57,429 bases of DNA from Hahella sp. HN01 (GTDB lineage: Bacteria; Pseudomonadota; Gammaproteobacteria; Pseudomonadales; Oleiphilaceae). A program made the position numbers and the translations under genes. The notes under the pieces were generated by a model. It worked only from the letters and a program-made list of their open reading frames with translations, did not search any database and was not told the DNA's origin. The DNA lies in contig NZ_JAHMIN010000005.1 in assembly GCF_018986435.1 (NCBI RefSeq), forward strand, positions 22,175-79,603, read 5' to 3'. Shown here one piece after another: positions 38,139 through 52,538 of the stretch. Positions within the stretch are counted from its first letter, which is position 1; each line of letters begins with the position of its first letter.

Positions 38139-41100
38139 CTATAGCGGCGGAAGCATATCCACTTCCGCCTGCGCCAGCTCCTGATGCGGCTTGACGGTGT
38201 CAATGCACAGGGTCACGTCGCCGGGGGTGAGGTAGGGCTCCAGAATCGGCGCCATGCCGCGTAATACCTGCACAGGCAGCGCGGAGGTGAAATGGAAGTC
38301 GCTGGAGGCTTTGCCCGGCACATAGGCGGTAAGCGTGCCGAAATGGTTGTTTCCCAGATAGAACACAAAGGTGGCGGTGCGATTGAGCGCCGTGCCGCCG
38401 CTGCGACGCCCGTTATCGGAGATATTGAAGATACGGTTGTCGCCGGTGCCGGTCTTGCCGCCCAACGCCAGCATGCGTCCATCGGGCAGTACGAAACCGC
38501 CTTGCAGGCGCCGCGCCGTGCCAGCCTCAACCACGTCTGACAACGCGTCTCGCAATGCCGCCGCCACATACGGGTCCATGACCCGGTCGGCTGTGGTGCG
38601 ATAGTGCCGCAATTTCACTTCATAAGGCGTCTCTGCAGCGAAATGCAACTGATCCAGGCGGAAGGTGGGCAGGCGCAGGCCATCGTTGAGGATGATGCCC
38701 ATCAACTCCGCCAGGGCGGCGGGACGGTCGCCGGAACTGCCCAGAGCGGAAGCCAGCGAGGGCACCAGATGGTCGAACGGATAGCCCAGACGACGCCAGC
38801 GCTGATGCAGGTTGGCGAAAGCCTCTACTTCGAGCATGGTGCGGATACGGGAGTCCTGCGCATTCTTGGCGCGGGTGCGGAACAGCCAGCCGTACACTTC
38901 CTGGCGACGCTCGCGACTGGCCGCGGAGAGTTCAGCGAACTCCGCCTGCGGATGTTTCTGTAAATACGCTAGCAACCACAACTCCAACGGATGCGCTTCG
39001 GCGATATAGGCTTGATCCGGCAGGCTGAAAGCGCCGGGGGCATAACGTACGAACAATTCCTCCATGCGTTCATCGCTGATTCTGTCATGGGGCAGTCGCT
39101 GCGCCAGAAAAGTCTCGAAGGTGCGCAGATCCGAATAGGGGAAGATATAGCGATGCGCCGCCGCCAGCCGCACTGGATTCAGGCGCAGACGGTCCAGAAA
39201 TATATCCAGTTGCTCTTCGCTGCTTTTACCTTGATAGGCGCTCCAGAAACGTTGCAGGAAGATCAGCCCCTCGCGGTCGGCGAAGCGCGCCAGATATTCA
39301 TGGCGACGGGGATCGTCGGGGTCTCCCAGTAATTGCCGGCTGTCCTGCTGGTTGGCGTTGATCTCATGGCGCACCAGATCCTGCAACAGGCGCACGAAGG
39401 GCAGGTTGATGGACTCGCGCAGGGACTCTCGCACGGTGGGAAAGCGATGATTGTCCTGACTGCTGAAATTGCGGAAGGTATGAACCCCGCCGCCTGTGAA
39501 GAATATCTCTTCTGGATTGGCGGAATAACGTCTGTCCAGCGCCGCCTGCAGCATGGGCGGCAGGGATTTGTCCTCCGCCTGGATCAGATACTCCAGCGCC
39601 CAGGCGGTGATGGGATCATGTGACGTCTTGGCGGTGTGACGCAGGACTTCTTCGTCCTCGGCGGCGTAAGTCAGGTGCAACGTGGCGATCAGTTCCAGAT
39701 AGCTGGCCAGCACCCGCAGTTTGGCGGTGGAGCCCAGCTCCAGCTTGCTGCCCTCGTTGATGTCGAAGGGCTGTCCGGTGTTGTCGGTCTGCACCCGCAC
39801 CCGGTTACCGGTGGCGGAGCGCTCGAACAGGGTGAAGCTGTAATACACCTCTCGCGCCTGGCCCTCGGACAGTAAACGCGGCCCTACCAGTCCAGTGGCT
39901 TTGGCGAATTCAGGGTCGCTCAGGCCGCGCAAATAGGCGGACACCTGACGTTGCAGGCTGCCCTGCAGGGTAGAGGAGGCAGTCAGATCGGTGCGATCCA
40001 GGTCGTACAGGGACAAATTGAACATCCGCGCCAGACGCAGGCGCGCCACATTGACGCCTTTGTCCGCATCCACCGGCGTCACTACGCGGGCTTCCGTAAA
40101 ATCACGATAGTGCGTGCGTTGCCCCAGGGCGGCGTCCCGCAACGGCGCGCCGATCTCGCCGCCATTGGCCATCAGGCGCAGATAGCTGTCAGTGAGATTC
40201 TCCAGGTCGGCGCGGCCTTGCATCAGATAATAGGAAGGGCGTCGATGTGCGATCATCAGGGACAATATGCGGCGCAGCGTCTGAGCCTGCTTTTCCAGCA
40301 GCTCGCCTTCCGCGCCGTTCATGTTGAGCAGATGGTTAGCCTCAATAAAGTCCGCCCCGAACCAGACCCACAAACCATCGCCGACGCCGTGTACTTCGCC
40401 TTGACCGGGCGCGGCGGCCAGCGGGACCGTATTAAGGTAGGACAGCACCAGATCCTTGCGCGCGGACAGCGTTTCCGGCCCGGCCTGATAGGCACGCACG
40501 CTGGCGGACAGCATTTGCAGCAGCTTGTCGCGGGGTGAGGAAGTCAGCCCTTCGGCGGAATGGCGATACTTTTCCATTTGCGTGGCCAGGGTACTGCCGC
40601 CCATAGAGGCGAAATCTCCGCCTAACGTGTTGCCGATGCGCACAACGGCGGCCTTGCTGAAGCGCCCCCAGTCCACCGCGGGATTAATCAGCGGGTGTTC
40701 CGTATCCAGCAGGTTACGGTTCTCAATAAACAGCAACGTGCTCGCCACCAGCGGCGGCACGGATTCAAAGTCGTCATAAATCCGCTGTGGGTAACGGTTG
40801 CGGTACATCACGTCCCCGCGACAGTCGAGTATATCCAGTCCAGCCTGTGACTTCTCCCGATAGGGTGGGAACAGGCCGTGGGAGGTGTACTCCATCAAGG
40901 CGGGAGAGAAACTGGCTTGGGATTTAACTTCCCAGCTTTGTTGATTCAGTTGCTGCAGAAAATCCGGCAGAGCGACATACCCCAAGCGCTTATCAAACGG
41001 TCCCTGCTCCGGATAGCGCACCGCCTCCGCAGGCCCCGCAGTAAGGCTGTAGTTCAGTTGACCGGCGTAGCGCGAAAACAACCGCGCCTGAAAACGAGAA

Positions 41101-41282
41101 GTGTGACTTTCAAAGTAAAAAAGGAGGGTTCCCACGACCAGAATAAGCGCGGTAATGCGCAACAACACCCTCTTCAACCCCGCCCCTTGCTCATTTTCGA
41201 CAAAAGAGGGCAGAGAATCCGGCTGGGATTCGGAATCAGGCCTGTTAGGCCAATTTTGGCGGGCTTTAAATATCGTAAACAT
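38139..41282 (-). CDS. Large atypical class A penicillin-binding protein (GT51 plus transpeptidase)
   Basis: 1047 residues from ATG 41282; GTG 41297 is possible. A membrane helix (about 40-58) is followed by a GT51 transglycosylase domain (FIENRN, GGSTLATQ about 185-245) and a transpeptidase domain with S-x-x-K (LGSTAK, Ser518), and KTG in GGKTGTG (Lys about 943). It polymerises and cross-links peptidoglycan in the periplasm. It is longer than PBP1a/1b/1c and has insertions between SxxK and KTG (about 600-860). It lies directly left of the AT-rich island and looks intact. Confidence 0.88.
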   Translation of the reverse strand: MFTIFKARQNWPNRPDSESQPDSLPSFVENEQGAGLKRVLLRITALILVVGTLLFYFESHTSRFQARLFSRYAGQLNYSLTAGPAEAVRYPEQGPFDKRLGYVALPDFLQQLNQQSWEVKSQASFSPALMEYTSHGLFPPYREKSQAGLDILDCRGDVMYRNRYPQRIYDDFESVPPLVASTLLFIENRNLLDTEHPLINPAVDWGRFSKAAVVRIGNTLGGDFASMGGSTLATQMEKYRHSAEGLTSSPRDKLLQMLSASVRAYQAGPETLSARKDLVLSYLNTVPLAAAPGQGEVHGVGDGLWVWFGADFIEANHLLNMNGAEGELLEKQAQTLRRILSLMIAHRRPSYYLMQGRADLENLTDSYLRLMANGGEIGAPLRDAALGQRTHYRDFTEARVVTPVDADKGVNVARLRLARMFNLSLYDLDRTDLTASSTLQGSLQRQVSAYLRGLSDPEFAKATGLVGPRLLSEGQAREVYYSFTLFERSATGNRVRVQTDNTGQPFDINEGSKLELGSTAKLRVLASYLELIATLHLTYAAEDEEVLRHTAKTSHDPITAWALEYLIQAEDKSLPPMLQAALDRRYSANPEEIFFTGGGVHTFRNFSSQDNHRFPTVRESLRESINLPFVRLLQDLVRHEINANQQDSRQLLGDPDDPRRHEYLARFADREGLIFLQRFWSAYQGKSSEEQLDIFLDRLRLNPVRLAAAHRYIFPYSDLRTFETFLAQRLPHDRISDERMEELFVRYAPGAFSLPDQAYIAEAHPLELWLLAYLQKHPQAEFAELSAASRERRQEVYGWLFRTRAKNAQDSRIRTMLEVEAFANLHQRWRRLGYPFDHLVPSLASALGSSGDRPAALAELMGIILNDGLRLPTFRLDQLHFAAETPYEVKLRHYRTTADRVMDPYVAAALRDALSDVVEAGTARRLQGGFVLPDGRMLALGGKTGTGDNRIFNISDNGRRSGGTALNRTATFVFYLGNNHFGTLTAYVPGKASSDFHFTSALPVQVLRGMAPILEPYLTPGDVTLCIDTVKPHQELAQAEVDMLPPL

Positions 41283-41297
41283 AATTAAATCAATCAC

Positions 41298-41683
41298 TTA
41301 TGGATAATACTGCTGTTCAATAAATGATCAATATGATTTATTATGTCCACAAAGTGTCCACAGCCGCAAGCGGTGTCCACGGGATGCTGGCTGCGGCTTC
41401 CTCCTTAAACTTGGCTCCCCCGTACTTCAAAACATAGCTGAAAGTTTCAATTTAGGAAAATCGTTAGCTCTCACATGCTCGCCAGTGGCGGGCCTTCCCT
41501 CGGCTATCCAGTTTCATGGCGAAAAGCTTTTCTCGAAACCCGCAGGCGTGGGGAGGAGTGAACTTCAGCTTCCATGACGGCAGTAGGCTGTAGTGAGTCA
41601 ATAGCGTGGATTACCCAAGGGTGAAGAAGCTTTGGTGTCTGTTCATCGTTAAAATGGACAAGGGGGAATAACTTCTTTCAAGA
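41298..41683. other. Island left flank: short repeats and a degenerate fragment
   Basis: 386 nt between the host PBP gene and the AT-rich cargo gene. TGTCCAC occurs three times (41344, 41355, 41374). A minus-strand frame at 41464-41601 reads 45 residues with ...ACGFREKLFAMKLDSRGKARHWR..., which looks like translation of a dispersed repeat or gene relic, not a proven gene. A left attachment site may lie here, but its partner is outside the window. Confidence 0.4.
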
Positions 41684-44600
41684 TCATGTAGCTGGATTAT
41701 CAAAAAATACATACCACAGATTATTTTTCCTACTTTCGGACAACCATACTTTTTTGGGTTTATATTCAAGAAGGCGATTAATTTCCCTCGTCAAGCTTGT
41801 CAGCTCAGAATTGTTTGGCCCATCATTTGAATAGAATTGGCACCAATTCAAAAATCCATAAAGCCAAGCAACCAACTTCATAGATGAGTCCCATTTACTC
41901 CAGTTAATGCTGGGTGAAAGAGGCCTTCTAATATCTCTCTCAACCTTCTTAAGCCTTTTAGCTAGTCTATTTATAGCTTCAGACTGCGCTTTAAGAGGGC
42001 TAATAGAAAACAACTGAGCTGCAATATCTGTCATCATTACATCCTCTTTTGACAGATAACTGGAAAGTTCAAATAATTTGCTAAGCCTACCTTCCAACTC
42101 TGTAATCCATATAGATAAAAAAACTTTCTTGCTATCTGCATATCGCTCGACTAATGGGCATAATACTTTCTCGGGAAACCAAGATGAAATATAGCCAAGT
42201 TCTCTCATCCTGCCTCTCATTGAATCAACGATATGTGTAACATCATCGTCTGTTGGGTATTTAGAAATTGCTGTGTTTATAAGGTACTCTATAATATCTT
42301 TAGCCCACTCAGGATCGCTCCCACCATGTAAGTTTCTATTTAGTAACCAACCAATAAATTGGATCTGAGTTTTTTTGTCAACTCTATCTATAATCGACAA
42401 AAAAACAGCGGCGTCTTGAGTTTCATTCAACTTAATTTCGATATAAGAAAAAGCAATAAATTTCAACACAGGGAGTTCACTTGAAATCAATATTTCCATC
42501 TGGAATTTAGTACTTTTACGGTGACAAGAAGTTGATATCTCAGATATACAATGAGCTATCAAATCTAACTTTTTACGAGTTTTTTTAGATGACAAAGAAG
42601 GAATTAAATCATTCTCTAAAAGAGCTATAAACTTTTCCGTTTCGTACTGATACAAAATTTTAATTGCATAGTAATCACCCCAGCTTAATCCATCTATCTT
42701 ATAATATTGTATGAATCCGTCCCTATCTATATCAATCAGATTTCTCAGAAGCACATCCAACGAGGCTTCAAAGTAAGAATATGTTCCTGGCATTGTCATA
42801 CTATTGGAAACTATCTCGGCCGCATTTTTGAACCTTCCATCTAAATAAATAAATATTTTATCTAGTGCCTTTTGGCTAAAAGCAGCGTCAGCAGAAAAAA
42901 AGCTCCCAGTATCCGTATTAGCTATTAGTAGCGAAAGATCATCCCAGCATGAAAACAGCTCTGCGTCCTCTACGGCTTCCAAAGCGGCAGAAACATTTTC
43001 ACAAGATATCGATTTATTTATTTCTTTGCTTTTCTTTTTTTTTTCATCAAGCGACAGACTACTCTTTTTCTTCAAATAGTCCCTTGAACAGAATGCCAAA
43101 GTTAAACTACCTTCACCGGCTAAAACACCTTCAATGTACCTATTAACATGAGGAATAATCTCGCCATCTATTGATGTTACCAATAGAGGGAAATTTTCAT
43201 TTGCCTTTTGAATTGAGTTTGACAATGAAAACCCTTTCTTTATTCGACCTTTCTTATCTGCAATTAACAAGTATCTGTCATGTATTTCCGAAACCTTATA
43301 CACCTTTATGCAACTACTTGATAATATATCTTTCATCGCTTCAACTGAGATTTTTATTTTGTCAATATTTTTATTTTTATTGCTTGTTAATATTACTACA
43401 TTTGAACCATTATCCGCATAGCGAGCAATAAGATCGACTCCAACGCTTTCAAAATACGGATCAAATATTATAAAGTCATCGCCAGCGTGTTTATTGAACA
43501 GAGATTTCCACCATTCGACAAATTCCAACCTGCCTTCACCTTCTGTATGGTGAGGAAAAAACTTTCCCTCTGTTTTTTCAGGAAACTCACGCGCTACCAG
43601 TCTCTCTATTTTTCGTTGTTCGTTAACCCATAGATCCGGATCGCGAGTGCTAATAGTTGAGGTTTGTCGCCTGCTGCATTTTGTGACTGATTGTGCTGCT
43701 TTAACTCTATCATTTCCGTCATTAAGTTTTGTCAGCTTTGTCAGCCATGAGTTCTCAATAACCCCTGAGAAGTATACAGGACTCACACTTAATGATATTT
43801 CTCTGATGAAATTATATTTTTGACTAAATATCAAAAAACATTCATTACAATCTCTCTTCTGCCCAAAAAGTTCAATTACTCGACCGTCAACAGATTTCTT
43901 CCAGTCTTGATTTATTCTCACATTAAAGGATATTTTATTTTCGTTATGGTATTCATTGGCAATGATATTTGCCTGGAAAGCTTGATTGTTATTTATATGC
44001 TCCACTTTTAGCACGTAAGAGATAAATTCTTCATGTCTATCAGGGTGATAATTTATTTTTACGCCATTCTGGCTATCAATAATTTCTAATTTTGAGCGAC
44101 AATATTCATCGATGGTAGGGAATGACAGTATTTCGAGATCACCTATTCTAGGAGCATCTTTTTTAGATAGGTCAAGCCCAGTATCTAATTTTATTTCACT
44201 AGAAATGTAACGATACAATTCATCCAAGACTCTACCATCAGATTGAATAAATGTTTCTTTCTGCAAAGAAATGATTGAAGCACTATTTGCTCCCGCCCCC
44301 GAATAAGGGCTAAACAGCCCTCTGTGCTCATAATTATCGCGGGACGGAAGATAGGTAACTGGCTTGAGAACTTTACACTCGTCTAGCTTTAGATTTCCAA
44401 ACCGCTCTCTAAAGACTTTTTTCATGGCTATTTCTGAACGATTGCTTGCCTCTTCAATTGAGCTTCCGCTATACATTAGTCCGAGAAAAGATTTTATCTC
44501 TTTTGCATTTAGATAAGAACTAAGACAAATGACCTGTACTTCTTCTCCCGAAATATTTTTAAATTTATCTTCATTAGGTGCACTCCAAGAATTATTAGAA

Positions 44601-44749
44601 AAGTGATAAGGAACAACCCAACCATAGACCAACCTGGAAGAGCGATCTTTTTTTTGGAGAACCCAAAGCTGCAAAGCACATTTTGACTCATCATCAAACA
44701 AAGGCTTTAATCGATAGTCTTCAAATACAGTATCTATTGTAATATCCAT
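41684..44749 (-). CDS. VPA1262-like protein with phospholipase-D-like domain, possible defence gene
   Basis: 1021 residues. The N-terminal part (about 1-160; LQLWVLQKKD, RLVYGWVVPYHFSNNSWSAP) resembles the VPA1262 family as I recall it. The middle part carries PLD-like features: FIIFDPYF (Asp430), then His490-Asp-Arg-Tyr, Asp498 and GFSLSN (506-511), matching the variant H-x-R/K...D...G-x-S-x-N motif of PLD nucleases. The C-terminal half (about 560-1021) is helical and may be a repeat sensor. DNA is about one-third GC by eye, unlike all neighbours, showing transfer. It is minus-strand, 134 nt downstream of the phage late operon. Function is not established; anti-phage activity is inferred. 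Confidence 0.8.
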   Translation of the reverse strand: MDITIDTVFEDYRLKPLFDDESKCALQLWVLQKKDRSSRLVYGWVVPYHFSNNSWSAPNEDKFKNISGEEVQVICLSSYLNAKEIKSFLGLMYSGSSIEEASNRSEIAMKKVFRERFGNLKLDECKVLKPVTYLPSRDNYEHRGLFSPYSGAGANSASIISLQKETFIQSDGRVLDELYRYISSEIKLDTGLDLSKKDAPRIGDLEILSFPTIDEYCRSKLEIIDSQNGVKINYHPDRHEEFISYVLKVEHINNNQAFQANIIANEYHNENKISFNVRINQDWKKSVDGRVIELFGQKRDCNECFLIFSQKYNFIREISLSVSPVYFSGVIENSWLTKLTKLNDGNDRVKAAQSVTKCSRRQTSTISTRDPDLWVNEQRKIERLVAREFPEKTEGKFFPHHTEGEGRLEFVEWWKSLFNKHAGDDFIIFDPYFESVGVDLIARYADNGSNVVILTSNKNKNIDKIKISVEAMKDILSSSCIKVYKVSEIHDRYLLIADKKGRIKKGFSLSNSIQKANENFPLLVTSIDGEIIPHVNRYIEGVLAGEGSLTLAFCSRDYLKKKSSLSLDEKKKKSKEINKSISCENVSAALEAVEDAELFSCWDDLSLLIANTDTGSFFSADAAFSQKALDKIFIYLDGRFKNAAEIVSNSMTMPGTYSYFEASLDVLLRNLIDIDRDGFIQYYKIDGLSWGDYYAIKILYQYETEKFIALLENDLIPSLSSKKTRKKLDLIAHCISEISTSCHRKSTKFQMEILISSELPVLKFIAFSYIEIKLNETQDAAVFLSIIDRVDKKTQIQFIGWLLNRNLHGGSDPEWAKDIIEYLINTAISKYPTDDDVTHIVDSMRGRMRELGYISSWFPEKVLCPLVERYADSKKVFLSIWITELEGRLSKLFELSSYLSKEDVMMTDIAAQLFSISPLKAQSEAINRLAKRLKKVERDIRRPLSPSINWSKWDSSMKLVAWLYGFLNWCQFYSNDGPNNSELTSLTREINRLLEYKPKKVWLSESRKNNLWYVFFDNPAT

Positions 44750-44883
44750 ATCAAATTCTACTTGTTATTTTGTATCAGTCATGATGTCCAATTTGTGGCG
44801 AAAGCAGTTCTTCTCTATTTTGCACAGAGTAAAATGTTAGCACATGCACCAATACCTGCTTTGGGTATAGGTAATATTTGAGC

Positions 44884-45972
44884 CTACCGCATTATCCCTA
44901 TAATTTGACTTTTCAAAGTGCCTGCCCGGCTTGCTTGGCCGCTATGGCTCCCACTACTTGATGGCGTCCCGCTTCCTCCTCCGTGGGTGTGGCTCGCCGT
45001 CGTAGCCGCCAACTCCTGAACCACTCCGATTAGATCCGCAATCACCTGCAACACATCCACTCCACCGCCGCCCATGGCGATTGCTGGCGCTTGGATGGTT
45101 ACGGCGGCGCTGGCTTTTAATTCGATGACTTGCGCCTGAATCTGCCTGGCTGCGCTGGCGATGTCGGTATGGCTTCCCTGAACGTTTATGGTTTTGTTGG
45201 CGCTGGTTTGTGTGTCGTTGCCGCTGATCGTCACGGAGCGCGAGCCGCCCACGGTGGCGCTGTCGTCGCCTTGGATCGACGCTTGCCGGTTTCGTGCGAC
45301 GGCCTGGTTAAGATCGGCGGCGGTGGTCAGGTTCAGGTTATCCGCCGCCGATAAATTGGCGTGCCCGCCGCTCAGCAGCTTTAACGCTCCCAAGGCTTCT
45401 ACCGTCTTCACGCCGCCGACATATTCCGCGCCATGTTCGCTGACCTCGGTCAGGCTGTCCTGGTAACGTTCTTGATTGTCCTGGGCGTCCACGCGCCGAC
45501 GGGCGCTTTTATCGGTTATGTCTCCGGGCGTTTCGCGCAACCAGTCGCCTTTGGCGCTCACGCGCTGGCGTACCGCTTCGGATTGCTGCCACACCAGGTC
45601 ACCGGGTTGGATACCTGGCGCGCCTAAGCCCTGTCCCAATACCGTGCGGATAAAGGGCTGATCCGGTAAGCCATAGGCGAACGCCACCTCTACGATGGTC
45701 CCCGGTTCCGGGAAACCGAACTGGCCGCGCTCGATGCCGCCATAAGACGCCGGCAATGGCACGCAACGATAAAGGGGAAGTTCCGGATCTTCCTCACCCT
45801 GGGGCGTCAGCACGCGAACGTCTACGGCGTAGCGAGGGCGGAAGCGGTCGCAGAGTTCCGGCTTTTGCAGTGGGTCGCTGATCGCCACCACCTTGGCCAG
45901 GCGCGGCAAATGTAAATTCCCGCTCAGTTCTGGAAACATCCGCAATACTATCTTTTTAATCTCTTCGTCCAC
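44884..45972 (-). CDS. Phage baseplate spike protein (gpV/gp5-like)
   Basis: 362 residues from GTG 45972 (GGAG upstream; the frame is also open to 46050, which would deeply overlap the hub gene). N-terminal OB-like part (RLAKVVAISDPLQKPELCDRFRPRYAV, FPEPGTIVEVAFAYG), a middle beta-helix-like repeat region (NLTTAADLN, ATVGGSRSVTI, SANKTINVQGSHTDI) and a His/Gly/Ser-rich tip (SHTHGGGSG). This is the membrane-piercing spike of contractile tails. It is the last gene of the late operon in this window. Confidence 0.85.
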   Translation of the reverse strand: MDEEIKKIVLRMFPELSGNLHLPRLAKVVAISDPLQKPELCDRFRPRYAVDVRVLTPQGEEDPELPLYRCVPLPASYGGIERGQFGFPEPGTIVEVAFAYGLPDQPFIRTVLGQGLGAPGIQPGDLVWQQSEAVRQRVSAKGDWLRETPGDITDKSARRRVDAQDNQERYQDSLTEVSEHGAEYVGGVKTVEALGALKLLSGGHANLSAADNLNLTTAADLNQAVARNRQASIQGDDSATVGGSRSVTISGNDTQTSANKTINVQGSHTDIASAARQIQAQVIELKASAAVTIQAPAIAMGGGGVDVLQVIADLIGVVQELAATTASHTHGGGSGTPSSSGSHSGQASRAGTLKSQIIGIMR

Positions 45973-46661
45973 GGCGCAGCGCTCCAGGTTAGATTCATGT
46001 GATTGTCGGCCAGGCTTACCTGGGTGACGTAATGGGTTTGGTTCAGCCAAACGCCAGGGCGGAGTTTTGGTGTTGCCGGCAGGCGGGCGCGGTTGGCCAC
46101 GCCGAAGCCGTTTAATAAGTGGGTCGGGATCTCCACGGGCCGGGTCGCCCAGTAGCTATGAGCCCACCCGCCAACATAAACCGCGCCGTCGCCTTGCTGT
46201 TGCCAGATCAGTTGCGGGATGTCGTACACCTCCGCCAAGGCGTCCATGCAGTGATAACCGCCGCCCCATGAATAAAACGCCGGCGCTTTGGTGTTCGCGT
46301 AAGACTCCGGCGGCGTCACAAAAATTAGCCCGGTGTCCTGACTGATCGCCGCCAGGGTCTCGTTTAAGGTCACGTGTCGCAGATTAAGCGCTAAGCGTCG
46401 GTTTAACGTAGCGGTTAGCTCCCGACAAAATACCCGCTGTTGCTGGTTATCCAGGGGCGTGCAGCTTTCCACGTAACCAATAAAAAACCGCTGCAAGGCG
46501 CTGGGGTCATAGCCCATCGCGAACTGGACCACGCCGGACAAGGGGGCGTCCGCCTGCACGGTAAACACCGCCCGCCCAGGACTGAACAACGCCAGGCGCA
46601 CGTCTTCAGACACCAATTTAAGCGGCGTTCCGCCCACGCTCAGGGATTTATGCAGCTTCAT
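45948..46661 (-). CDS. Phage baseplate hub protein (gpD/gp44-like)
   Basis: 237 residues. N-terminal VGGTPLKLVSEDVRLALF, a second domain with FFIGYVESCTPLDNQQQRVFCREL and a LysM-like helix region, ending KLRPGVWLNQTHYVTQVSLADNHMNL, typical of tail hub proteins that hold the spike. It overlaps the next upstream gene by 4 nt and the spike gene by about 25 nt. Assigned by position and fold-like features rather than a strong motif. Confidence 0.7.
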   Translation of the reverse strand: MKLHKSLSVGGTPLKLVSEDVRLALFSPGRAVFTVQADAPLSGVVQFAMGYDPSALQRFFIGYVESCTPLDNQQQRVFCRELTATLNRRLALNLRHVTLNETLAAISQDTGLIFVTPPESYANTKAPAFYSWGGGYHCMDALAEVYDIPQLIWQQQGDGAVYVGGWAHSYWATRPVEIPTHLLNGFGVANRARLPATPKLRPGVWLNQTHYVTQVSLADNHMNLTWSAAPWTKRLKR

Positions 46662-47179
46662 GCCAGCGCCTTGTCTACCTTACTCAGGAACGTTTCAAAG
46701 CCGGTCAGGGTTTCCCCTTCGGCGGGCGCGTCTTCCTGGACGGCGATAGTTTCCCCGGTGGCCTGTTGCACCTCCGTCTGGCTCAGGTCGCGGCGCTGTT
46801 CGGTCTTCTCCGCCACGCTCAGGTATTCCGCCAGGGTAAAACTGACGCGCCAAGCCTGGCTGGGGGACAGATCCTTGCACACGAACGCTCCCGTGAATTG
46901 CACCTGGCGCACGTTCATCGCTCGCGCGGTATCTTCGACAATGTCGTAAACGCGTAGCTTGCCGGCGCCGTCCTCCGCTTCCGCCACTTTCACCAGGTCG
47001 GTTAAGTCGCCCGCGTGCTTCTTCAGGATCAGCAGGGACACGGTCAGCGTTTTCGGCTTGATGCCCTTGTTAGCGCGATCCGTGCCGCTGGTCTGGCCGC
47101 CCAGGTCCTCCGTCTCGATGCGCAGATTGCCCGTCACCGTTAATTCGGTCCCGGGGACGGTAAAATCGTTGAGTCTCAT
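46658..47179 (-). CDS. Phage baseplate complex protein
   Basis: 173 residues; N-terminal half beta-rich (LTVTGNLRIETEDLGGQTSGTD), with VSLLILKKHAGDLTDLVKVAEAEDGAGKLRVYDI and VRQVQFTGAF, which match the 'baseplate complex protein' group of K139-like phages as I recall it. It ends in a predicted helix. 4-nt overlaps (ATGA) with both neighbours place it in the tail operon. Its exact role in baseplate assembly is not established. Confidence 0.65.
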   Translation of the reverse strand: MRLNDFTVPGTELTVTGNLRIETEDLGGQTSGTDRANKGIKPKTLTVSLLILKKHAGDLTDLVKVAEAEDGAGKLRVYDIVEDTARAMNVRQVQFTGAFVCKDLSPSQAWRVSFTLAEYLSVAEKTEQRRDLSQTEVQQATGETIAVQEDAPAEGETLTGFETFLSKVDKALA

Positions 47180-48075
47180 AATCCGAAAGTCTCTTTTAAA
47201 AAGGTCAGCTGGCCCGCGTTGGCAACAAACAACGCCCCCGCCGTCAGCACGTATTCATGCCCGGGCGCGCCTGCTTGTAACTGCGCCGCCACGGCTGACG
47301 CATCGCCCTGGGCGTAAAGCGCAAAACCCGTCTGGCCGTTCAGCTGGCCTTTTAATTCGTTGTAGTGGCTTTGCAGTTCTTTTAAGCGTTGGCGCTTTTG
47401 TTCAATGACGGCTTGCAGCTCGGCCATTGGGCTTGGCGTTTCCGCCGCATAGCCTTGCGCCGTGGCCAGCTGCGCCCCGACCGCGCGCCCATGCTGCGCC
47501 AGGCGCGGGATCTGCACGCCGTCGCGTGCCGTCCAGGGCGGCGTCAGGGGCGCATCCGGTAGCAACCACTTTTCCTGCTCCAGGGTGGCCAGCTGCGCTG
47601 CCCGCCGCTGCGCCAGTTGCAGCTCCGGCGCGGGGAATACCGCGTTGAAAGCCGCCAGGCGTTCGGCGAAGCCCGCCAGATCCCGCGCCACGATCAACAC
47701 GGCCACCGCGTCCAGCTGGCCCCGGGGCCGGCCCGTGTCCTGGGCGTCAGTCAGTTTGGCCGCCAGGCGCGCCGCCGCATTGGGCGCGGACAAGTAGCGA
47801 TATAAGCCGCTCCCGTCGCCCACGCCTTCCTGAAACGGATGCACACACAACACACGGCCTTCATAACGCATTAACGCCTGGTAGGCCTCCCGCGCCGCTG
47901 CGGCCTCGCTGGCCTGCGTCGCCAGGGGATTTGGAGAGTACGCGAGCGATAGCCCATTAATCCGCGTGCTGGCTTCTGCCAGGGACGCGTCCGCGCCGGC
48001 CAGGATCGGCGCCGCCAGGGCGACGGCTTGCGCCTCGGTATTTGACGCGCTGAACGCGGTCAGTCGCCAACTCAT
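47176..48075 (-). CDS. Phage tail-region protein, function unknown
   Basis: 299 residues, Ala-rich and mainly helical with a coiled coil near 215-245 (AVIEQKRQRLKELQSHYNELKGQLNG). Starts MSWRLTAFSASNTEAQAVAL and has a mid strand LDAVAVLIVARDLAGFAERL. Found beside the baseplate complex protein in similar prophages; no function recognised. It may be a tail or baseplate accessory. 4-nt overlaps on both sides. Confidence 0.7.
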   Translation of the reverse strand: MSWRLTAFSASNTEAQAVALAAPILAGADASLAEASTRINGLSLAYSPNPLATQASEAAAAREAYQALMRYEGRVLCVHPFQEGVGDGSGLYRYLSAPNAAARLAAKLTDAQDTGRPRGQLDAVAVLIVARDLAGFAERLAAFNAVFPAPELQLAQRRAAQLATLEQEKWLLPDAPLTPPWTARDGVQIPRLAQHGRAVGAQLATAQGYAAETPSPMAELQAVIEQKRQRLKELQSHYNELKGQLNGQTGFALYAQGDASAVAAQLQAGAPGHEYVLTAGALFVANAGQLTFLKETFGL

Positions 48076-48428
48076 ACCGCCTCGGGCCGAAGGTTCGGCG
48101 CGCTGGGTCGGGGTCCATTCGGAAAATCCGCTTGCTGGGGATAGTCGCGCAGGGCGCAGCGATACGCCCGCCAGCGTTGCGCTTGGCCGTCGCTGTCCAG
48201 GTCCTCCACTTTGAATAATTCAATGTCCGCGCGCTTCAACTCCAGGTCGCGCCAGGCGCGTTCCGCGCGCTGCTTGTCATCCAGCGCCGCCGCGCTACGG
48301 TCAAACGGGCTCAGCGTCGCGGCGCCGGCTTCCACCTCCGCCAGGATCTTCGCTTTAAAGTGCGCCGGGTACGTGGTGCAGTCACACACAAACTCACCGT
48401 ATTGGTTTTCTAGATAGCGTTTCGTCAT
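48072..48428 (-). CDS. Phage tail fibre assembly chaperone-like protein
   Basis: 118 residues; the C-terminal part (AWRDLELKRADIELFKVEDLDSD, then WRAYRCALRDYPQQADFP) carries the W-R-x-Y-R-x-x-L-R-x-Y-P-Q pattern typical of tail-fibre assembly chaperones or tail-assembly proteins that accompany fibre genes. It directly follows the fibre gene (13-nt gap). Confidence 0.75.
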   Translation of the reverse strand: MTKRYLENQYGEFVCDCTTYPAHFKAKILAEVEAGAATLSPFDRSAAALDDKQRAERAWRDLELKRADIELFKVEDLDSDGQAQRWRAYRCALRDYPQQADFPNGPRPSAPNLRPEAV

Positions 48429-48441
48429 CGTGTCTTATTCC

Positions 48442-50442
48442 TTAATAGCGCGCGTCCAAAATGGCTCTGCCTTGCCTGATCGCCGTGTGTCCGCTGCCGT
48501 TGGGTTGCAGGGTGATATAACAGTTTTTATCGGTGACCCCTTCCGCTCTGGCAAAAATGCCGCCCGTGCAAGACAGGTCCAACAGACTGACCGCCGGCGG
48601 CACGCGCATGGTCGGATACCACAGGCTACCCACCGTGAAGCGCTCTTCATCGGTGGTCCATCCTTGCAAGTAGGGAATCGTCACCGCGCGGTAATAGCGT
48701 TGGCATTGCGCCAGGGCTTCATGCAATGAAATCGGTTCAAATTCGCTGGACGTTTCGCCCAGCTCCAGCTGCATCGCATGCAGGCGCAGCTGGTTGTTGA
48801 CCTTGGCCGCAAATCCATAATGGGTGTCGTCCTCGATATGCACGGACACGCTAATCCCGACGCCGGTTCTCTCCGTGCTTAAGTGGTGGTCCGCAAACTC
48901 AAAGGCGACCTCCACCTCTTGAAAGGGAAAGGTAGCGCCGCCAGTGACGGCCAGGGCCTTCCAGCCCAGCAGCAGGCTGGTGTCGTGGTTATGCACCGCC
49001 ACGCCCAGTTTGCCGGTGTAATTGGCGCAGAAGCGCACTTTAAACACCGCTTTGATGTTGCTGGATTTGCCCAGACGGGTGATCGGCTGCAAGGTGGACG
49101 CCTCAATGAACTGCACCACGCTCACCAGCGAATTACGGGTGGACGCGGCGGTACAGGTCAACGCCATGCCGAGCTTGTTGTCCAGCAAGTGTGCGTTCAG
49201 CTCGCCGTTGAATTTATTGGCGCGATGCAGCCGCCAGCCATCGGCCAGATAGGTTAAGTGGCCGGGACTGACCACGGCGGGGCCGGTTTGCCACACGGAA
49301 AAATAGGGATTGATCAGCAAGTTTTTGCGCCCGGAAATCAGCGTCGTGAATTGCTCCTTGCGCAGGTAATTCGGATGCGGGTCCGCCTGGGCCATATGCG
49401 CGCCCATAAAGCCCTGCACCACTTGCGCCGCGACCTGTTTCCCTTTGTCCGTGTCCAGGTATTGCGCATGCGGATCGGCGTCCGCTGTGTGCGCCGCCAA
49501 GGCCGACTTGGCCACCTCGCCGGCGACGCTACGCCCCTGGCCATCGGTCAGGTATTGCGGATGTGGGTCAGAGTTGGCCTTATGCGCTTTCAGGGCGTCC
49601 TTGATCGCGGCGACCGCCAGCGGACGGAGATCTGTAATAACGCCATCTATGGCGATATCCGCCAGCTTCGCCACATAGTGACGCACGCCGTTGGCGTCGG
49701 GGCCGCCTTCGGCCTGCTCTGCGACAATCACCTGCAAGCGTGCCTCTACGCCGCTCACGTCGCCCACCAGGGCCGCGTCCACCCAAATACTGGCGGGCCG
49801 CGCGGTGACCGTGACGGCTAAGGGCTCGGTCAGCTCGATGCGCACGCCGCCCACATAGCCGACTCCGGGCTGCAATGCGAAGCGCCCACCCGCGCGCACC
49901 ACTTTAAACCCGTCTTGAATGAAGGTGGCGGCGCCGTAAAAATCCTGATTGCTCAGGCGCTCGCGCTCATCGATGCCCAACAGACGCGCGGTGAAATCAA
50001 TCTGCCAGGTGTCGGCGCTCACTGTTATGTCCGTCAGCGACTGCGCGCCGTTGAACTCCAGCATAAAGTTGCGGGTGATCGCGTTGCCGGTGACGCCGCC
50101 CTGGGTTTTGCGTTTCTGTTGCAGGGGCACATGGGCGATGGCCACCACCGTATTGTCGTCAGTAGTGGACACCAGACCGATCCAGTTAAACGCAAAGTCG
50201 CCCTGGGTGCTGTCCAAAATGAGCGAGTACACCACCAGGTTAGGATTGACGTAGCCCACTTGGGTGACGCCGCCGCTAAACACCTGGTGGCTGGCGTCGG
50301 GTAAACCTTCGTTACGGTCAATAGGCGCGACGGGGTCCAGTCCCGGCACGTTGGCCAGTACAAAACCGTCGATAGTCAGCGGCGCGCCCGCCGCTTGTTT
50401 CTGGGCGATCAGCCGTTCCCCGGCGAGGGTGATCACAGGCAT
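48442..50442 (-). CDS. Phage tail fibre protein (tail-collar N-domain)
   Basis: 666 residues. The N-terminal part (MPVITLAGERLIAQKQA, with SHQVFSGGVTQVGYVNPN) is the P2 gpH-like tail-collar domain that joins the baseplate. The middle carries three repeats with D-P-H-x-x-Y (SDPHPQYL, ADPHAQYL, ADPHPNYL; about 295-370), as in trimeric fibre shafts where His may bind metal. The C-terminal part (about 380-666) is beta-rich and should contact the host receptor, so it probably sets host range. Confidence 0.88.
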   Translation of the reverse strand: MPVITLAGERLIAQKQAAGAPLTIDGFVLANVPGLDPVAPIDRNEGLPDASHQVFSGGVTQVGYVNPNLVVYSLILDSTQGDFAFNWIGLVSTTDDNTVVAIAHVPLQQKRKTQGGVTGNAITRNFMLEFNGAQSLTDITVSADTWQIDFTARLLGIDERERLSNQDFYGAATFIQDGFKVVRAGGRFALQPGVGYVGGVRIELTEPLAVTVTARPASIWVDAALVGDVSGVEARLQVIVAEQAEGGPDANGVRHYVAKLADIAIDGVITDLRPLAVAAIKDALKAHKANSDPHPQYLTDGQGRSVAGEVAKSALAAHTADADPHAQYLDTDKGKQVAAQVVQGFMGAHMAQADPHPNYLRKEQFTTLISGRKNLLINPYFSVWQTGPAVVSPGHLTYLADGWRLHRANKFNGELNAHLLDNKLGMALTCTAASTRNSLVSVVQFIEASTLQPITRLGKSSNIKAVFKVRFCANYTGKLGVAVHNHDTSLLLGWKALAVTGGATFPFQEVEVAFEFADHHLSTERTGVGISVSVHIEDDTHYGFAAKVNNQLRLHAMQLELGETSSEFEPISLHEALAQCQRYYRAVTIPYLQGWTTDEERFTVGSLWYPTMRVPPAVSLLDLSCTGGIFARAEGVTDKNCYITLQPNGSGHTAIRQGRAILDARY

Positions 50443-50455
50443 GGTAAAAACTCCT

Positions 50456-51052
50456 TTAAAGTCGTGCGACTAACTGTTGTGAATCGTGGTTAGGCTCCGC
50501 CAGGCGTAAGGACAGGCGGAGACTATTCGGCAAGATCGCCGTCAGGGTTTGCTGGTCCCAGTCAAATTCCCCCACGCGCACGTCGAACGTAACCGGGGTA
50601 ATCAAGGCGAACTCATAGCGGCGACAGGTGCGCCCGTACATTTGCAGGATGATGCGCAATAGCTCCGGGTTGTCGCTCAGCTGGTTATCGGACAGACGCA
50701 AGATGATCACGTCCCAATCCCGCCCCGGGGCGCGTTCTTCGATCTCCACATAGCCCACCCCCAAACGCAGCATGATGCGCTTGAAGCCAGCCACGCTGCC
50801 GGCGTCCACCGCATTGGCGTAGGCGTACTTCACCCGCAGCCGGTAGAGGCGTTCCGGCTCGCCAGCAAAGCGCGCGATATTGCGTTGCCAGGCCAGCAGA
50901 TTGAGCACGCCCAGGGCGCAGGTTTCCGCGTCGATCTGACGCAGCGGCCAGCGCAACCAGTGTTCGACGCGCTCCCAGTAACGACGGGCGGCGCGGGCCA
51001 GCTTGGCCAGCTGCTCCCCGCCGAGCCAAAACGGCAATTTAATTTCGATCAT
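50456..51052 (-). CDS. Phage tail protein I (P2 gpI-like)
   Basis: 198 residues. YWERVEHWLRWPLRQIDAETCALGVLNLLAWQRNIARFAGEPERLYRLRVKYA is the family core (baseplate wedge component next to the fibre). It overlaps the baseplate J gene by 4 nt and precedes the fibre gene, the order normal for P2-like phages. Confidence 0.85.
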   Translation of the reverse strand: MIEIKLPFWLGGEQLAKLARAARRYWERVEHWLRWPLRQIDAETCALGVLNLLAWQRNIARFAGEPERLYRLRVKYAYANAVDAGSVAGFKRIMLRLGVGYVEIEERAPGRDWDVIILRLSDNQLSDNPELLRIILQMYGRTCRRYEFALITPVTFDVRVGEFDWDQQTLTAILPNSLRLSLRLAEPNHDSQQLVARL

Positions 51053-52218
51053 GGCAAGGTCACCGTTAGCGACTTCAGCCGGGGAATATCCATCCGGCTG
51101 GTGATATCGCCAGTTTTAAAATCAATGGACGCCAGCGCCGGAAACGTCGTGTGTAACTCCTGCGCCAGGCGGCTGAAGGAAAACCGGCTAAACGGAAAGG
51201 TCCGCGTGGGTTGGTAGTCCTGGTTCTCCCGAAACGCCGCCCGGATAAACTGCGTCACCGATTGCCTTAACTGCTCCCGCGCGTCCGCATCCAGGGCGCT
51301 GTCCGCCCATAGATCGGCGCTGACGTCGTGCTGGGTTTCCGGCATGGCGAACACCTGCAGGTCATCGCCGTGTCCGTGGTTGCCCTCGTCGGATATCCGC
51401 GCCTGGATGCGCGCCAAAAAGGGCGCGTCCGGGGTTCCGGTTTCAAACAAGATAAAGGCGTTGGCTGTCCCGGGACCGCGCGGCGCCTCATGCTCAAAAA
51501 ACACGTTGTCCACGCTGACGCCGTCGAAACTGGCGATAATCGCCGTATACACTGCGTCGGTGTGCCATTGGTTCACCGCGCTGAACTGGTTGCGCACTCG
51601 TAGACGTAACGCGTCGTCGGTTTCCCGATCCGCGCCAGGCTGCAACAGCCAGTTGTCCAGGTTGGTGACGGTCACCCCGGGGATGGGGCTCGGCGTCACC
51701 GCGTAATAACCCGCCGCCAGGTTGTAACCGCTGCCGGTGTCCGCCGCTTCCACCTCCACCAGCAAGTGGGCTTCGCCGTCTCTAAAGCGCTGCGCCCGGG
51801 TGGTCTGTAATCGGTAAATGCGCCCGTTAATGCTGGCGCTCTGTATCCAGGTTCCCGCCGCGATTTCCAGTTCTCCGGAGAGATCGCCCCGGGTGAACTG
51901 CACACGTCCGCGCGCCTTGGCCGCCTGCTTGCGCTCCACCGCCACGCCCCAGGCCAGAAGATCCAGGGCGGAGCCGCTGGCCGTCTTCACAAACATTTGC
52001 GGCAGCACGCCGGTTATCAGCAGATCCACCAGCCATAGCACGGGCTTGGTCACCAGCGCCGACACGATGCGCCACCAGGGCGAATACTCGCTGTTGTTGC
52101 TGAACGCCACGCCCTGGGCGGCGACTTCGTTTTCCCAGACGGTTTTTAGTTCCGCCTCGGTGGTCGGAATGCCGGCCTCTTTGACCAGGCGCGCAAAGTC
52201 CGCGTGGTGATCGTTCAT
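51049..52218 (-). CDS. Phage baseplate J / gp47-like protein
   Basis: 389 residues. Typical segments: ITGVLPQMFVKTASGSALDLLAW near 70-92, RGRVQFTRGDLSGELEIAAGTW, and a C-terminal ITSRMDIPRLKSLTV. Forms the wedge of the contractile-tail baseplate. 4-nt overlaps on both sides support coupled translation. Confidence 0.88.
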   Translation of the reverse strand: MNDHHADFARLVKEAGIPTTEAELKTVWENEVAAQGVAFSNNSEYSPWWRIVSALVTKPVLWLVDLLITGVLPQMFVKTASGSALDLLAWGVAVERKQAAKARGRVQFTRGDLSGELEIAAGTWIQSASINGRIYRLQTTRAQRFRDGEAHLLVEVEAADTGSGYNLAAGYYAVTPSPIPGVTVTNLDNWLLQPGADRETDDALRLRVRNQFSAVNQWHTDAVYTAIIASFDGVSVDNVFFEHEAPRGPGTANAFILFETGTPDAPFLARIQARISDEGNHGHGDDLQVFAMPETQHDVSADLWADSALDADAREQLRQSVTQFIRAAFRENQDYQPTRTFPFSRFSFSRLAQELHTTFPALASIDFKTGDITSRMDIPRLKSLTVTLP

Positions 52219-52538
52219 AGGTAAAACTCGATGTGTCCGTATTTCAGGGTTTTGGCGGTGATATACACCGTTTCCGGGTCCGTGCGCGTGACCTTCGCCG
52301 TGCCCGGTTTGATGCGTGCGTCGTTCTCCACCCGGGTTTCGATGCGGCTCAGGTTCAACGCCACTTTTTCCGGGTTGCGTTCGCCGATCAGCTCCACCAG
52401 CAGGCCGCTGTCGCGGATCATGTGTTTGATATCCTGGGCGATGGAGGCGCGCCCGCTGATCTCCTGCGGCACGCCGATAGCGTCCAGGCTGATATCGTTG
52501 TTAACGATGTGCAGGTCTATAAAGTCCGCCATAGTCAC
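52215..52538 (-). CDS. DUF2590 phage protein (baseplate wedge-like)
   Basis: 107 residues; FIDLHIVNNDISLDAIGVPQEISGRASIAQDIKHMIRDSGLLVELIGERNPE and NRIKPGTAK-like features fit the DUF2590 family of K139-type phages. By position it takes the place of the gpW/gp25 wedge subunit. 4-nt overlaps with both neighbours. Confidence 0.78.
   Translation of the reverse strand: MTMADFIDLHIVNNDISLDAIGVPQEISGRASIAQDIKHMIRDSGLLVELIGERNPEKVALNLSRIETRVENDARIKPGTAKVTRTDPETVYITAKTLKYGHIEFYL

What the first reader, a model, noticed from the sequence alone, without database searches (positions are those of the whole stretch)
41684..44749. AT-rich VPA1262/PLD-like gene as prophage cargo: candidate anti-phage system
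One intact 1021-residue gene of visibly foreign composition (about one-third GC by eye against a GC-rich surround) sits just downstream of a prophage late operon, the classic place for a cargo or 'moron' gene. The middle of the protein has a PLD-like site (Asp430; His490, Asp498, G-x-S-x-N at 506-511), flanked by a VPA1262-type N-domain and a long helical C-half that could sense infection. Only one PLD motif is visible, so a dimer would be needed. Single-gene nuclease-sensor fusions in such places are often defence systems, but no activity for this gene is known to me.
Basis: partly seen in the sequence, partly recalled or inferred. Interest (0 to 1): 0.78.

Follow-up and report, generated by a model that had tools for sequence, protein, structure and literature searches.

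The report
Prophage cargo gene, likely phage defence
A virus sleeping in a bacterial chromosome carries one large foreign gene of a little-studied family whose relatives move between bacteria and sit near known anti-virus genes; it may make a self-contained defence against rival viruses, but no test of it was found.

Summary
Window 41684-44749 (minus strand) is one intact 1021-codon ORF at 35.6% GC; same-length stretches elsewhere in the window average 57.6%. It is a VPA1262-family protein (NCBIfam, 562 bits, cut-off 325). Empty sites in two congeneric genomes place it inside a 37.7-kb prophage with a 15-bp att repeat, between the last tail gene and attR. Five of five sister copies of this phage type found in the genus lack it and carry other DNA there, one a cytosine methyltransferase. 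Models predict an N-terminal alpha/beta domain, a beta-sandwich, one PLD-fold domain and an ARM/HEAT-like helical half. Relatives are patchy, sit on plasmids and in islands near PADLOC defence genes, show no constant partner, and in three groups share DNA essentially over the gene alone. Best reading: a stand-alone, prophage-borne anti-phage protein whose HDR-type PLD domain cuts nucleic acid as a dimer. Mobility, slot and fold are computed; activity, sensing and defence are inferred. The family is named, but ten paper searches found no function.

The parts
41684..44749 (-). VPA1262-family gene, 1021 aa
   Evidence: ORF; NF040699 562.4 bits against cut-off 325; GC 0.356, GC3 0.309
44105..44749 (-). 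N-terminal alpha/beta domain (about residues 1-215); limits approximate
   Evidence: secondary structure of model mdf1bc913781a; NF040700 matches residues 71-543
43754..44104 (-). beta-rich, immunoglobulin/C2-like sandwich (about residues 216-332); limits approximate, fold name by eye from weak matches
   Evidence: strands 221-330 in the model; C2 and fibronectin-type chains among weak Foldseek matches
43106..43588 (-). HDR-type PLD-fold domain (residues 388-548); invariant D430, P431, H490-D491-R492, G506, S510-N511-S512, Q514, P521, T525
   Evidence: conservation in 70 of 70; separate model, pLDDT 89.4; Foldseek to polyphosphate kinase, Tdp1, FAM83A, NgoAVII R
41699..43012 (-). helical, ARM/HEAT-like C-terminal half (about residues 580-1017), proposed sensor
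   Evidence: helices 583-1017 in the model; weak Foldseek matches to beta-catenin and karyopherin-beta2
41566..44829 (.). variable cargo slot between tail operon and attR
   Evidence: G002 carries the same prophage at the same site but different DNA exactly here
41226..41240 (.). attR, 15-bp repeat; the other copy is 37,710 bp away on the contig, beyond the window
   Evidence: empty sites in G005 (L100) and G001 (L102)
44884..46050 (-). last late gene of the prophage, baseplate protein
   Evidence: phrog_4011 E 2.6e-104
46658..54559 (-). tail genes: HP1 ORF34-like baseplate protein, tail-fibre assembly, fibre, baseplate wedge, tape measure
38139..41297 (-). host transglycosylase (penicillin-binding-protein-like) gene; the phage inserts in its 5' end
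   Evidence: PF00912 E 2.4e-12; att core lies inside the ORF start

Best explanation
The gene is a stand-alone anti-phage defence gene that a P2/HP1-like temperate phage carries in a cargo slot between its tail operon and attR, so that a lysogen resists competing phages. Proposed working: the ARM/HEAT-like C-terminal half, perhaps with the N-terminal and beta-sandwich domains, recognises a product of an infecting phage. Recognition brings two protomers together, so that two single HDR-type PLD domains form one active site (His490 as nucleophile, Arg492 in place of the usual Lys, Ser510/Asn511 and Asp430 around the phosphate). The complex then cuts nucleic acid without metal, destroying phage DNA or stopping the infected cell. 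Shown by computation: ORF, family, prophage limits, variable slot, predicted PLD fold, conserved site, near gene-only sharing between some relatives, lack of a recurrent partner, defence-rich surroundings of the relatives. Inferred: dimerisation, catalysis, substrate, trigger, protection.
For: (1) Cargo slot: empty sites in G005 and G001 and a 15-bp att repeat delimit a 37.7-kb prophage. Five of five other copies of this phage type found in four congeneric genomes have unrelated DNA past the last tail gene and none of the six congeners has the family. In G006 that DNA starts with a C5 cytosine methyltransferase (E 1.7e-67) followed by a 525-aa unknown protein. (2) Mobility: of 97 genomes searched (own included) only the own genome is over the family cut-off, and of 369 drawn from the class 2, own included; DNA close to an Atlantibacter homologue is in 2 of 5426 E. 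coli genomes, the one viewed having an integrase and trb genes nearby; 5 plasmids have it, 4 typed conjugative. (3) Single-gene movement: 7 pairs from 3 groups at 91.6-95.2% DNA identity share the gene plus at most 183 bp before and 215 bp after; the only other shared stretch at 80% identity or more is 1046 bp in one pair. No neighbour family recurs in more than 7 of 67 loci. (4) Defence context of relatives: 217 proteins within 5 kb matched 143 and 301 PADLOC models in two batches, with PifA, GajA, KwaA, KwaB, PtuA, PtuB, QatA, TmtA, PD-Lambda-4, Helicase, DUF2290 and type I restriction among the 25 rows shown of each; 103 random proteins matched 10. (5) Fold: the PLD domain model (pLDDT 89.4) has 21 PDB matches at E <= 1e-3: polyphosphate kinase, Tdp1, FAM83A and the NgoAVII restriction nuclease. 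(6) H490, D491 and R492 are invariant in 70 of 70 and were not in the search patterns.
Against: No activity data of any kind. The PLD site is non-canonical: Arg for Lys, no conserved Asp498. FAM83A (BJ-TSA-9), which I recall as non-catalytic, is among the best fold matches, so the domain might only bind phosphate. No match in 50,697 phage records or in two scans of viral contigs, so prophage carriage may be rare. Of nine proteins scanned from past the last tail gene of sister prophages, only the G006 methyltransferase matched PADLOC at E <= 1e-4. PADLOC counts are models, not proteins; proteins 7-10 kb away also matched 127 models (133 proteins), so whole islands are enriched; the control is not matched by taxon. 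Relatives are not strongly AT-rich: 35 of 46 are below their surroundings, 15 of 46 by more than 5 points, median 2.6 points. The whole-protein Foldseek search gave no PDB match at E <= 0.001. D430-P431 and G506...S-N-S-x-Q lie in the search patterns, so part of their conservation is built in, and the 70 sequences include near-copies.
Confidence: 0.5

Rival explanations
1. Defence protein in which the PLD-like domain is not catalytic: the HDR pocket binds a phosphate, nucleotide or lipid as a signal or scaffold, and the helical half does the damage or recruits a host factor.
For: Lys of the motif replaced by Arg, Asp498 not conserved; FAM83A and MITD1 among the fold matches, both recalled as non-enzymatic.
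Against: The presumed nucleophile His is invariant in 70 of 70 over rows that carry 10 phylum labels (63 rows, some bins misassigned). Tdp1, polyphosphate kinase and the NgoAVII nuclease, recalled as active enzymes, are matched about as well.
Confidence: 0.2
2. Mobile-element competition gene that is not specifically anti-phage: it acts against plasmids or integrating elements, or stabilises its carrier like a toxin.
For: Carried by plasmids, an E. coli island with trb genes and loci with integrases as well as this prophage; no phage carriage found elsewhere.
Against: No partner family, so no antitoxin-like one, recurs in more than 7 of 67 loci; neighbours include many genes that PADLOC lists as anti-phage.
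Confidence: 0.17
3. Abortive-infection effector that acts on membrane phospholipid, as true phospholipases D do, instead of nucleic acid.
For: PLD fold; human PLD2 is matched at E 1.0e-3.
Against: Prokaryotic single-PLD defence enzymes known to me are nucleases (recalled), and NgoAVII R is matched at a similar score. Membrane segments were not searched for with a dedicated tool.
Confidence: 0.06
4. Phage-serving gene (morphogenesis, lysis or lysogenic conversion) that merely lies after the late operon.
For: Same strand as the late operon and 134 bp after it.
Against: Five of five sister copies have other DNA there; foreign composition; relatives on plasmids and in islands.
Confidence: 0.07

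Closest known systems
VPA1262 family, NCBIfam NF040699/NF040700 (VPA1262 of Vibrio parahaemolyticus lies in genomic island VPaI-6)
   Same: Above both curated cut-offs; island or mobile setting (PMC1464126, passages read)
   Different: Divergent: 18-29% identity to the 62 others aligned, 1021 against mostly about 1100 aa, inside a prophage. No function is stated for VPA1262 in the passages read.
Single-PLD-domain restriction nucleases (NgoAVII R protein; recalled also BfiI)
   Same: One PLD domain per chain (recalled), so an active site presumably needs a dimer; fold match 4rct E 9.5e-4
   Different: HDR instead of HxK; no recurrent methyltransferase partner; large helical half
SauUSI (type IV restriction enzyme, recalled)
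   Same: PLD nuclease (recalled) in one large protein; whole-model match 7clg E 7.9e-3
   Different: SauUSI is ATP-dependent by its PDB title; no helicase family matched in this protein
DruH of Druantia III
   Same: Large protein read as a phage sensor with Ig-like domains and dimer-enhanced nuclease activity (PMC13192584, passages read)
   Different: Works with DruE; DruH did not appear among PADLOC matches at E <= 10. Similarity is of plan only.
P2/P4 and K139-type prophage defence hotspots
   Same: Small loci of high turnover between conserved phage genes, including a K139-like phage (PMC9122126, passages and section 12 read)
   Different: The K139-type slot in that paper is between cI and integrase; this one is between the last tail gene and attR

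Membership tests
VPA1262 family (NCBIfam NF040699, NF040700) | score above curated cut-offs | tested here: met
   562.4 against 325 and 260.8 against 80 bits
PLD superfamily | PLD fold | tested here: met
   predicted domain; 21 PDB chains at E <= 1e-3, being polyphosphate kinase, Tdp1, FAM83A and NgoAVII R; TM by query length 0.48-0.61. A prediction, not a solved structure
PLD superfamily | HxK(x)4D(x)6GSxN motif (recalled consensus) | tested here: not met
   H-D-R, no conserved Asp at 497/498, then G-x3-S-N-S; His invariant 70 of 70. Filed as a PLD-fold domain with a variant site, not as a canonical PLD enzyme
PLD superfamily | phosphodiesterase activity through a phosphohistidine | not testable with these tools
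   needs purified protein
Anti-phage defence gene | relatives sit among known defence genes more than chance | tested here: met
   PADLOC tallies, against control; counts are of models, control not matched by taxon
Anti-phage defence gene | horizontally mobile, patchy presence | tested here: met
Anti-phage defence gene | protects cells from phage | not testable with these tools
Prophage cargo hotspot | same phage slot, different genes in sister prophages | tested here: met
   five of five sister copies differ past the last tail gene; the att sites of four of the five were not located, only that of the G002 copy at the same place
Druantia III DruH | sequence match to DruH models | tested here: not met
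   only PDC-S05 models matched at E <= 10
PADLOC PDC-S05 or NsnC | full-length match to the PADLOC model | tested here: not met
   PDC-S05: 80 residues of the PLD region, E 2.7e-4. NsnC: 5 of 44 members at E <= 0.001, best 9.5e-6, not the window protein; coverage not shown

The most novel reading that the evidence does not exclude
The VPA1262 family is a one-protein immune system of its own kind: an HDR-type PLD nuclease built into a beta-sandwich/ARM-repeat sensor, moving between distant bacteria as a cassette of one gene plus its promoter region, and loaded by P2/HP1-like phages into a tail-end cargo slot that differs from the K139-type slot in the hotspot paper read here.
Probability: 0.35. 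Interest if true: 0.7.

Novelty: new variant of a known kind. Interest (0 to 1): 0.52.

Why it matters
If true, a named protein family for which I found no function becomes a compact single-gene phage defence with an unusual PLD active site, testable by one clone and two point mutants. It would also add a cargo slot, between the last tail gene and attR of HP1/K139-like prophages, in which to look for new defence genes.

Tried and rejected
Canonical HKD reading rejected: Asp498 is Asp in 14 of 70 and Ser508 is Ser in 1 of 70. Membership in a PADLOC system rejected: only partial, weak matches. Two-gene system set aside: no recurrent partner. A profile link to small KilA-N/ORF6N-like proteins that also carry an HDR motif was weak (hhalign probability 12.7, E 0.0023) and is not claimed. 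Sequence-profile searches of solved structures gave nothing useful. Promoter- and terminator-like sites were at or below chance (12 promoter-like against 11.3 expected, 1 terminator-like against 2.6). 'NsnC' could not be identified from the papers. Ten paper searches found no function for the family; the library holds open-licence papers only, so most subscription papers were not covered.

Rows dropped. Family conservation used 69 of 81 ORF hits (those of at least 850 aa, near-copies kept) plus the window protein. Loci L050, L053, L059, L068 (near-copies) and L069, L079, L081 (short or broken) were left out of the neighbour sets; near set 230 reduced to 217 and far set 137 to 133 by de-duplication. 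Of 140 random control proteins listed, 103 were scanned for the residue limit: six from each of 17 stretches, one from the other. Two of 20 control stretches did not exist. The integrase profile was built from hits in the loci themselves, which favours them over the control. The PADLOC scan of the family used 44 of the 63 aligned members. The alignment for the PLD model used 62 of 63. The DNA-sharing list shows only stretches of 1500 bp or more that overlap the gene; re-read eight pairs for other stretches.
Full report
Observation. Window 41684-44749 (minus strand) is a single 1021-codon ORF at 35.6% GC and GC3 0.309. The rest of the window is at 57.7% GC, the lowest of 95 overlapping same-length stretches is 53.6%, and six other genes measured have GC3 0.66-0.84. 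It is a VPA1262-family protein well above both NCBIfam cut-offs. Pfam sees only a sub-threshold PLDc_2 match (E 0.033).

Setting. The genome (unnamed, 7.1 Mb) has six congeneric genomes on hand. Two, G005 and G001, hold the empty site: window DNA up to 41240 continues directly into DNA found at 78936 of the extended contig, overlapping by 15 bp. The repeat GGATTCGGAATCAGG occurs at 41226-41240 and 78936-78950, 37,710 bp apart. An integrase (77811-78824 in extended coordinates; L083 4986-5996) lies next to the far att. The prophage sits in the 5' end of a transglycosylase-type gene. The tail genes are of HP1/P2 kind (HP1_ORF34, baseplate, fibre, wedge, tape measure). The VPA1262 gene is the only large ORF between the last tail gene (lower end 44884) and attR.

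Slot. Five other copies of this phage type were found in the genus (G002 two, G005, G001 and G006 one each, the G006 protein being in two pieces). In all five, similarity to the window ends between 54 bp past the last tail gene and a point inside it (window 44830, 44885, 44903, 44922 and 45512), and other DNA follows. None of the six congeners has the family by profile. G002 has the same prophage at the same site with 2.3 kb of other DNA (GC 0.419) between window positions 44830 and 41565. G006 has a C5 cytosine methyltransferase (PADLOC type II methyltransferase) and a 525-aa unknown. G005 has DUF3800 and SDH-protease-like proteins. Of nine proteins scanned from past the last tail gene of sister copies, only the methyltransferase matched PADLOC at E <= 1e-4. 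So the slot is a turnover site; only one known set of contents is plainly defence-like. The att sites of the copies at other places were not located.

Family. One scan of genome contigs gave 72 loci and tblastn of plasmids 5 records. A DNA search of E. coli complete genomes with the Atlantibacter homologue gave 2 of 5426; one was viewed and has an integrase and trb genes within 15 kb. Phage records and two viral-contig scans gave none. Over the family cut-off it is in the own genome alone of 97 searched (3 of 97 at E <= 0.001, the two others weak and partial) and in 2 of 369 of the class, own included (6 of 369 at E <= 0.001). Tree rows carry 10 phylum labels, but some bins are misassigned: a 'Dehalococcoidia' copy is identical to a Pseudidiomarina one over 1686 bp.

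Mobility as one gene. Seven pairs from three groups (L017/L053; L022/L028/L059; L049/L061/L062, the last from Pseudomonas and Xanthomonas records) are 91.6-95.2% identical in DNA over the gene and at most 183 bp before and 215 bp after it. The only other shared stretch at 80% identity or more in these pairs is 1046 bp in L022/L059. Caveats: L049 has only 762 bp of upstream DNA, L059 is a MAG, and L061 is split over three ORFs. Against this, in the Idiomarina/Pseudidiomarina/Marinobacter group 3.6 kb or more upstream is shared as well, and L043/L067 share their whole stretch. The commonest neighbour families are in 7 of 67 loci (a GGDEF-like and a LuxR-type regulator), then IS66 transposase, HsdM and integrase in 5 each, and GuaA directly upstream in 4 (names mostly by eye from the sequence). 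An integrase profile, built from hits in these loci, matched in 13 of 67 loci and in 0 of 18 random stretches.

Defence context. Of the proteins of at least 150 aa nearest the gene in relatives (two a side, within 5 kb), 217 were scanned against PADLOC at E <= 1e-10. Batch A3 (109) matched 143 models and batch A4 (108) 301 models; the 25 rows shown of each name PifA, type I REase, QatA, GajA, KwaA, KwaB, ZorG, TmtA, PD-Lambda-4, Helicase, DUF2290, PtuA, PtuB, MTase_II, DruM, DrmMI, DrmMII, DpdF and MADS parts. Proteins 7-10 kb away (133) matched 127 models. The 103 random proteins matched 10, three of them MADS-part or AriA models that also occur in the other sets. Models are redundant, methyltransferase models especially, so these are not counts of proteins, and the control is not taxon-matched; the contrast is large but rough.

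Structure. AlphaFold2 with 63 sequences gave pLDDT 83.6 and pTM 0.70: an alpha/beta N-domain, a beta-sandwich, the PLD domain, then about 430 residues of helices. Foldseek on the whole model gave no PDB match at E <= 0.001, but its top rows hold FAM83A, polyphosphate kinase, SauUSI, NgoAVII R, Tdp1 and MITD1, and beta-catenin and karyopherin-beta2 weakly. The PLD domain alone (pLDDT 89.4, pTM 0.85) gave 21 matches at E <= 0.001, led by polyphosphate kinase 1xdo (4.5e-5), Tdp1 3sq5 (7.1e-5) and FAM83A 4urj (7.6e-5). In the viral library the top row for the whole model is a NucT-like nuclease at 3.5e-3, with none at E <= 0.001.

Site. Over 70 sequences D430, P431, H490, D491, R492, G506, S510, N511, S512, Q514, P521 and T525 are invariant. 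The scan patterns covered D430-P431 and the G506-to-Q514 stretch, so conservation there is partly built in; H490-D491-R492 were in neither pattern. Asp498 is Asp in 14 of 70. Only one such site was seen per chain, so a two-fold active site as in other PLD enzymes would need a dimer (inference). Coordinates of the models were not available, so the geometry of the site was not measured.

Reading. The best account is a single-gene, prophage-borne defence protein with an HDR-type PLD nuclease (0.5). A non-catalytic PLD-like pocket (0.2), a general mobile-element competition gene (0.17), a phage-serving gene (0.07) and a lipid-acting effector (0.06) are the rivals. Literature: 'VPA1262' occurs in two held papers, both on V. 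parahaemolyticus genomic regions (passages read). A third paper on the RIMD mobilome discusses VPaI-6, but the passages shown do not treat VPA1262. Rousset et al. 2022 describe a K139-type hotspot between cI and integrase (section 12 read), which is a different slot. Druantia III DruH offers a parallel of plan, not of sequence (PMC13192584, passages read). Passages of PMC12988326 (PDC-S05) and PMC12839542 (PLD in BREX) were seen and did not bear on the family.

Noticed in passing
L082 14163-17027 (same prophage, beyond the window; extended coordinates 66988-69852): A second AT-rich (GC 0.36) gene in the early region: 954-aa UvrD-like helicase with a bacterial PH domain and a Zn ribbon, between two look-alike small genes. 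G002 has about 3.5 kb without blastn similarity in place of window-extended 65910-72399, so it may be a second variable slot.
   Followed up: partly
window 41226-41297: The phage inserts inside the 5' end of a transglycosylase gene; the ORF stays open (1052 aa against 1059 aa at the empty sites), its start codon here lying in phage DNA.
   Followed up: partly
L107 1045-1938, L110 1420-2319, L111 979-1854, L008 1000-1863: Proteins of about 290 aa with a KilA-N/ORF6N-like N-terminus (recalled) and a C-terminal HDRFLI...GASLKD motif, which match the PLD part of the VPA1262 N-domain model weakly; perhaps a wider HDR-type PLD group.
   Followed up: partly
L052, L030, L054, L032: The VPA1262 gene lies within 500 bp of an upstream guaA (named by eye) in four records of different genera, which suggests a shared island insertion site.
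   Followed up: no
L061, L067, L075, L077, L079: Copies split over two or three ORFs; some may be decayed genes and some assembly errors (L067 is 99.4% identical in DNA to L043, whose copy is one ORF, on the same contig).
   Followed up: no
window 44884-46661: Two overlapping ORFs, 45948-46661 and 44884-46050, match the two halves of one baseplate protein family (phrog_2258, 544 positions); the same two ORFs are seen in sister prophages.
   Followed up: no
window 36453-38123: A 556-aa ORF with a Gly/Asp-rich linker before a C-terminal domain; by eye a secreted glycoside hydrolase with a carbohydrate-binding domain (names recalled).
   Followed up: no
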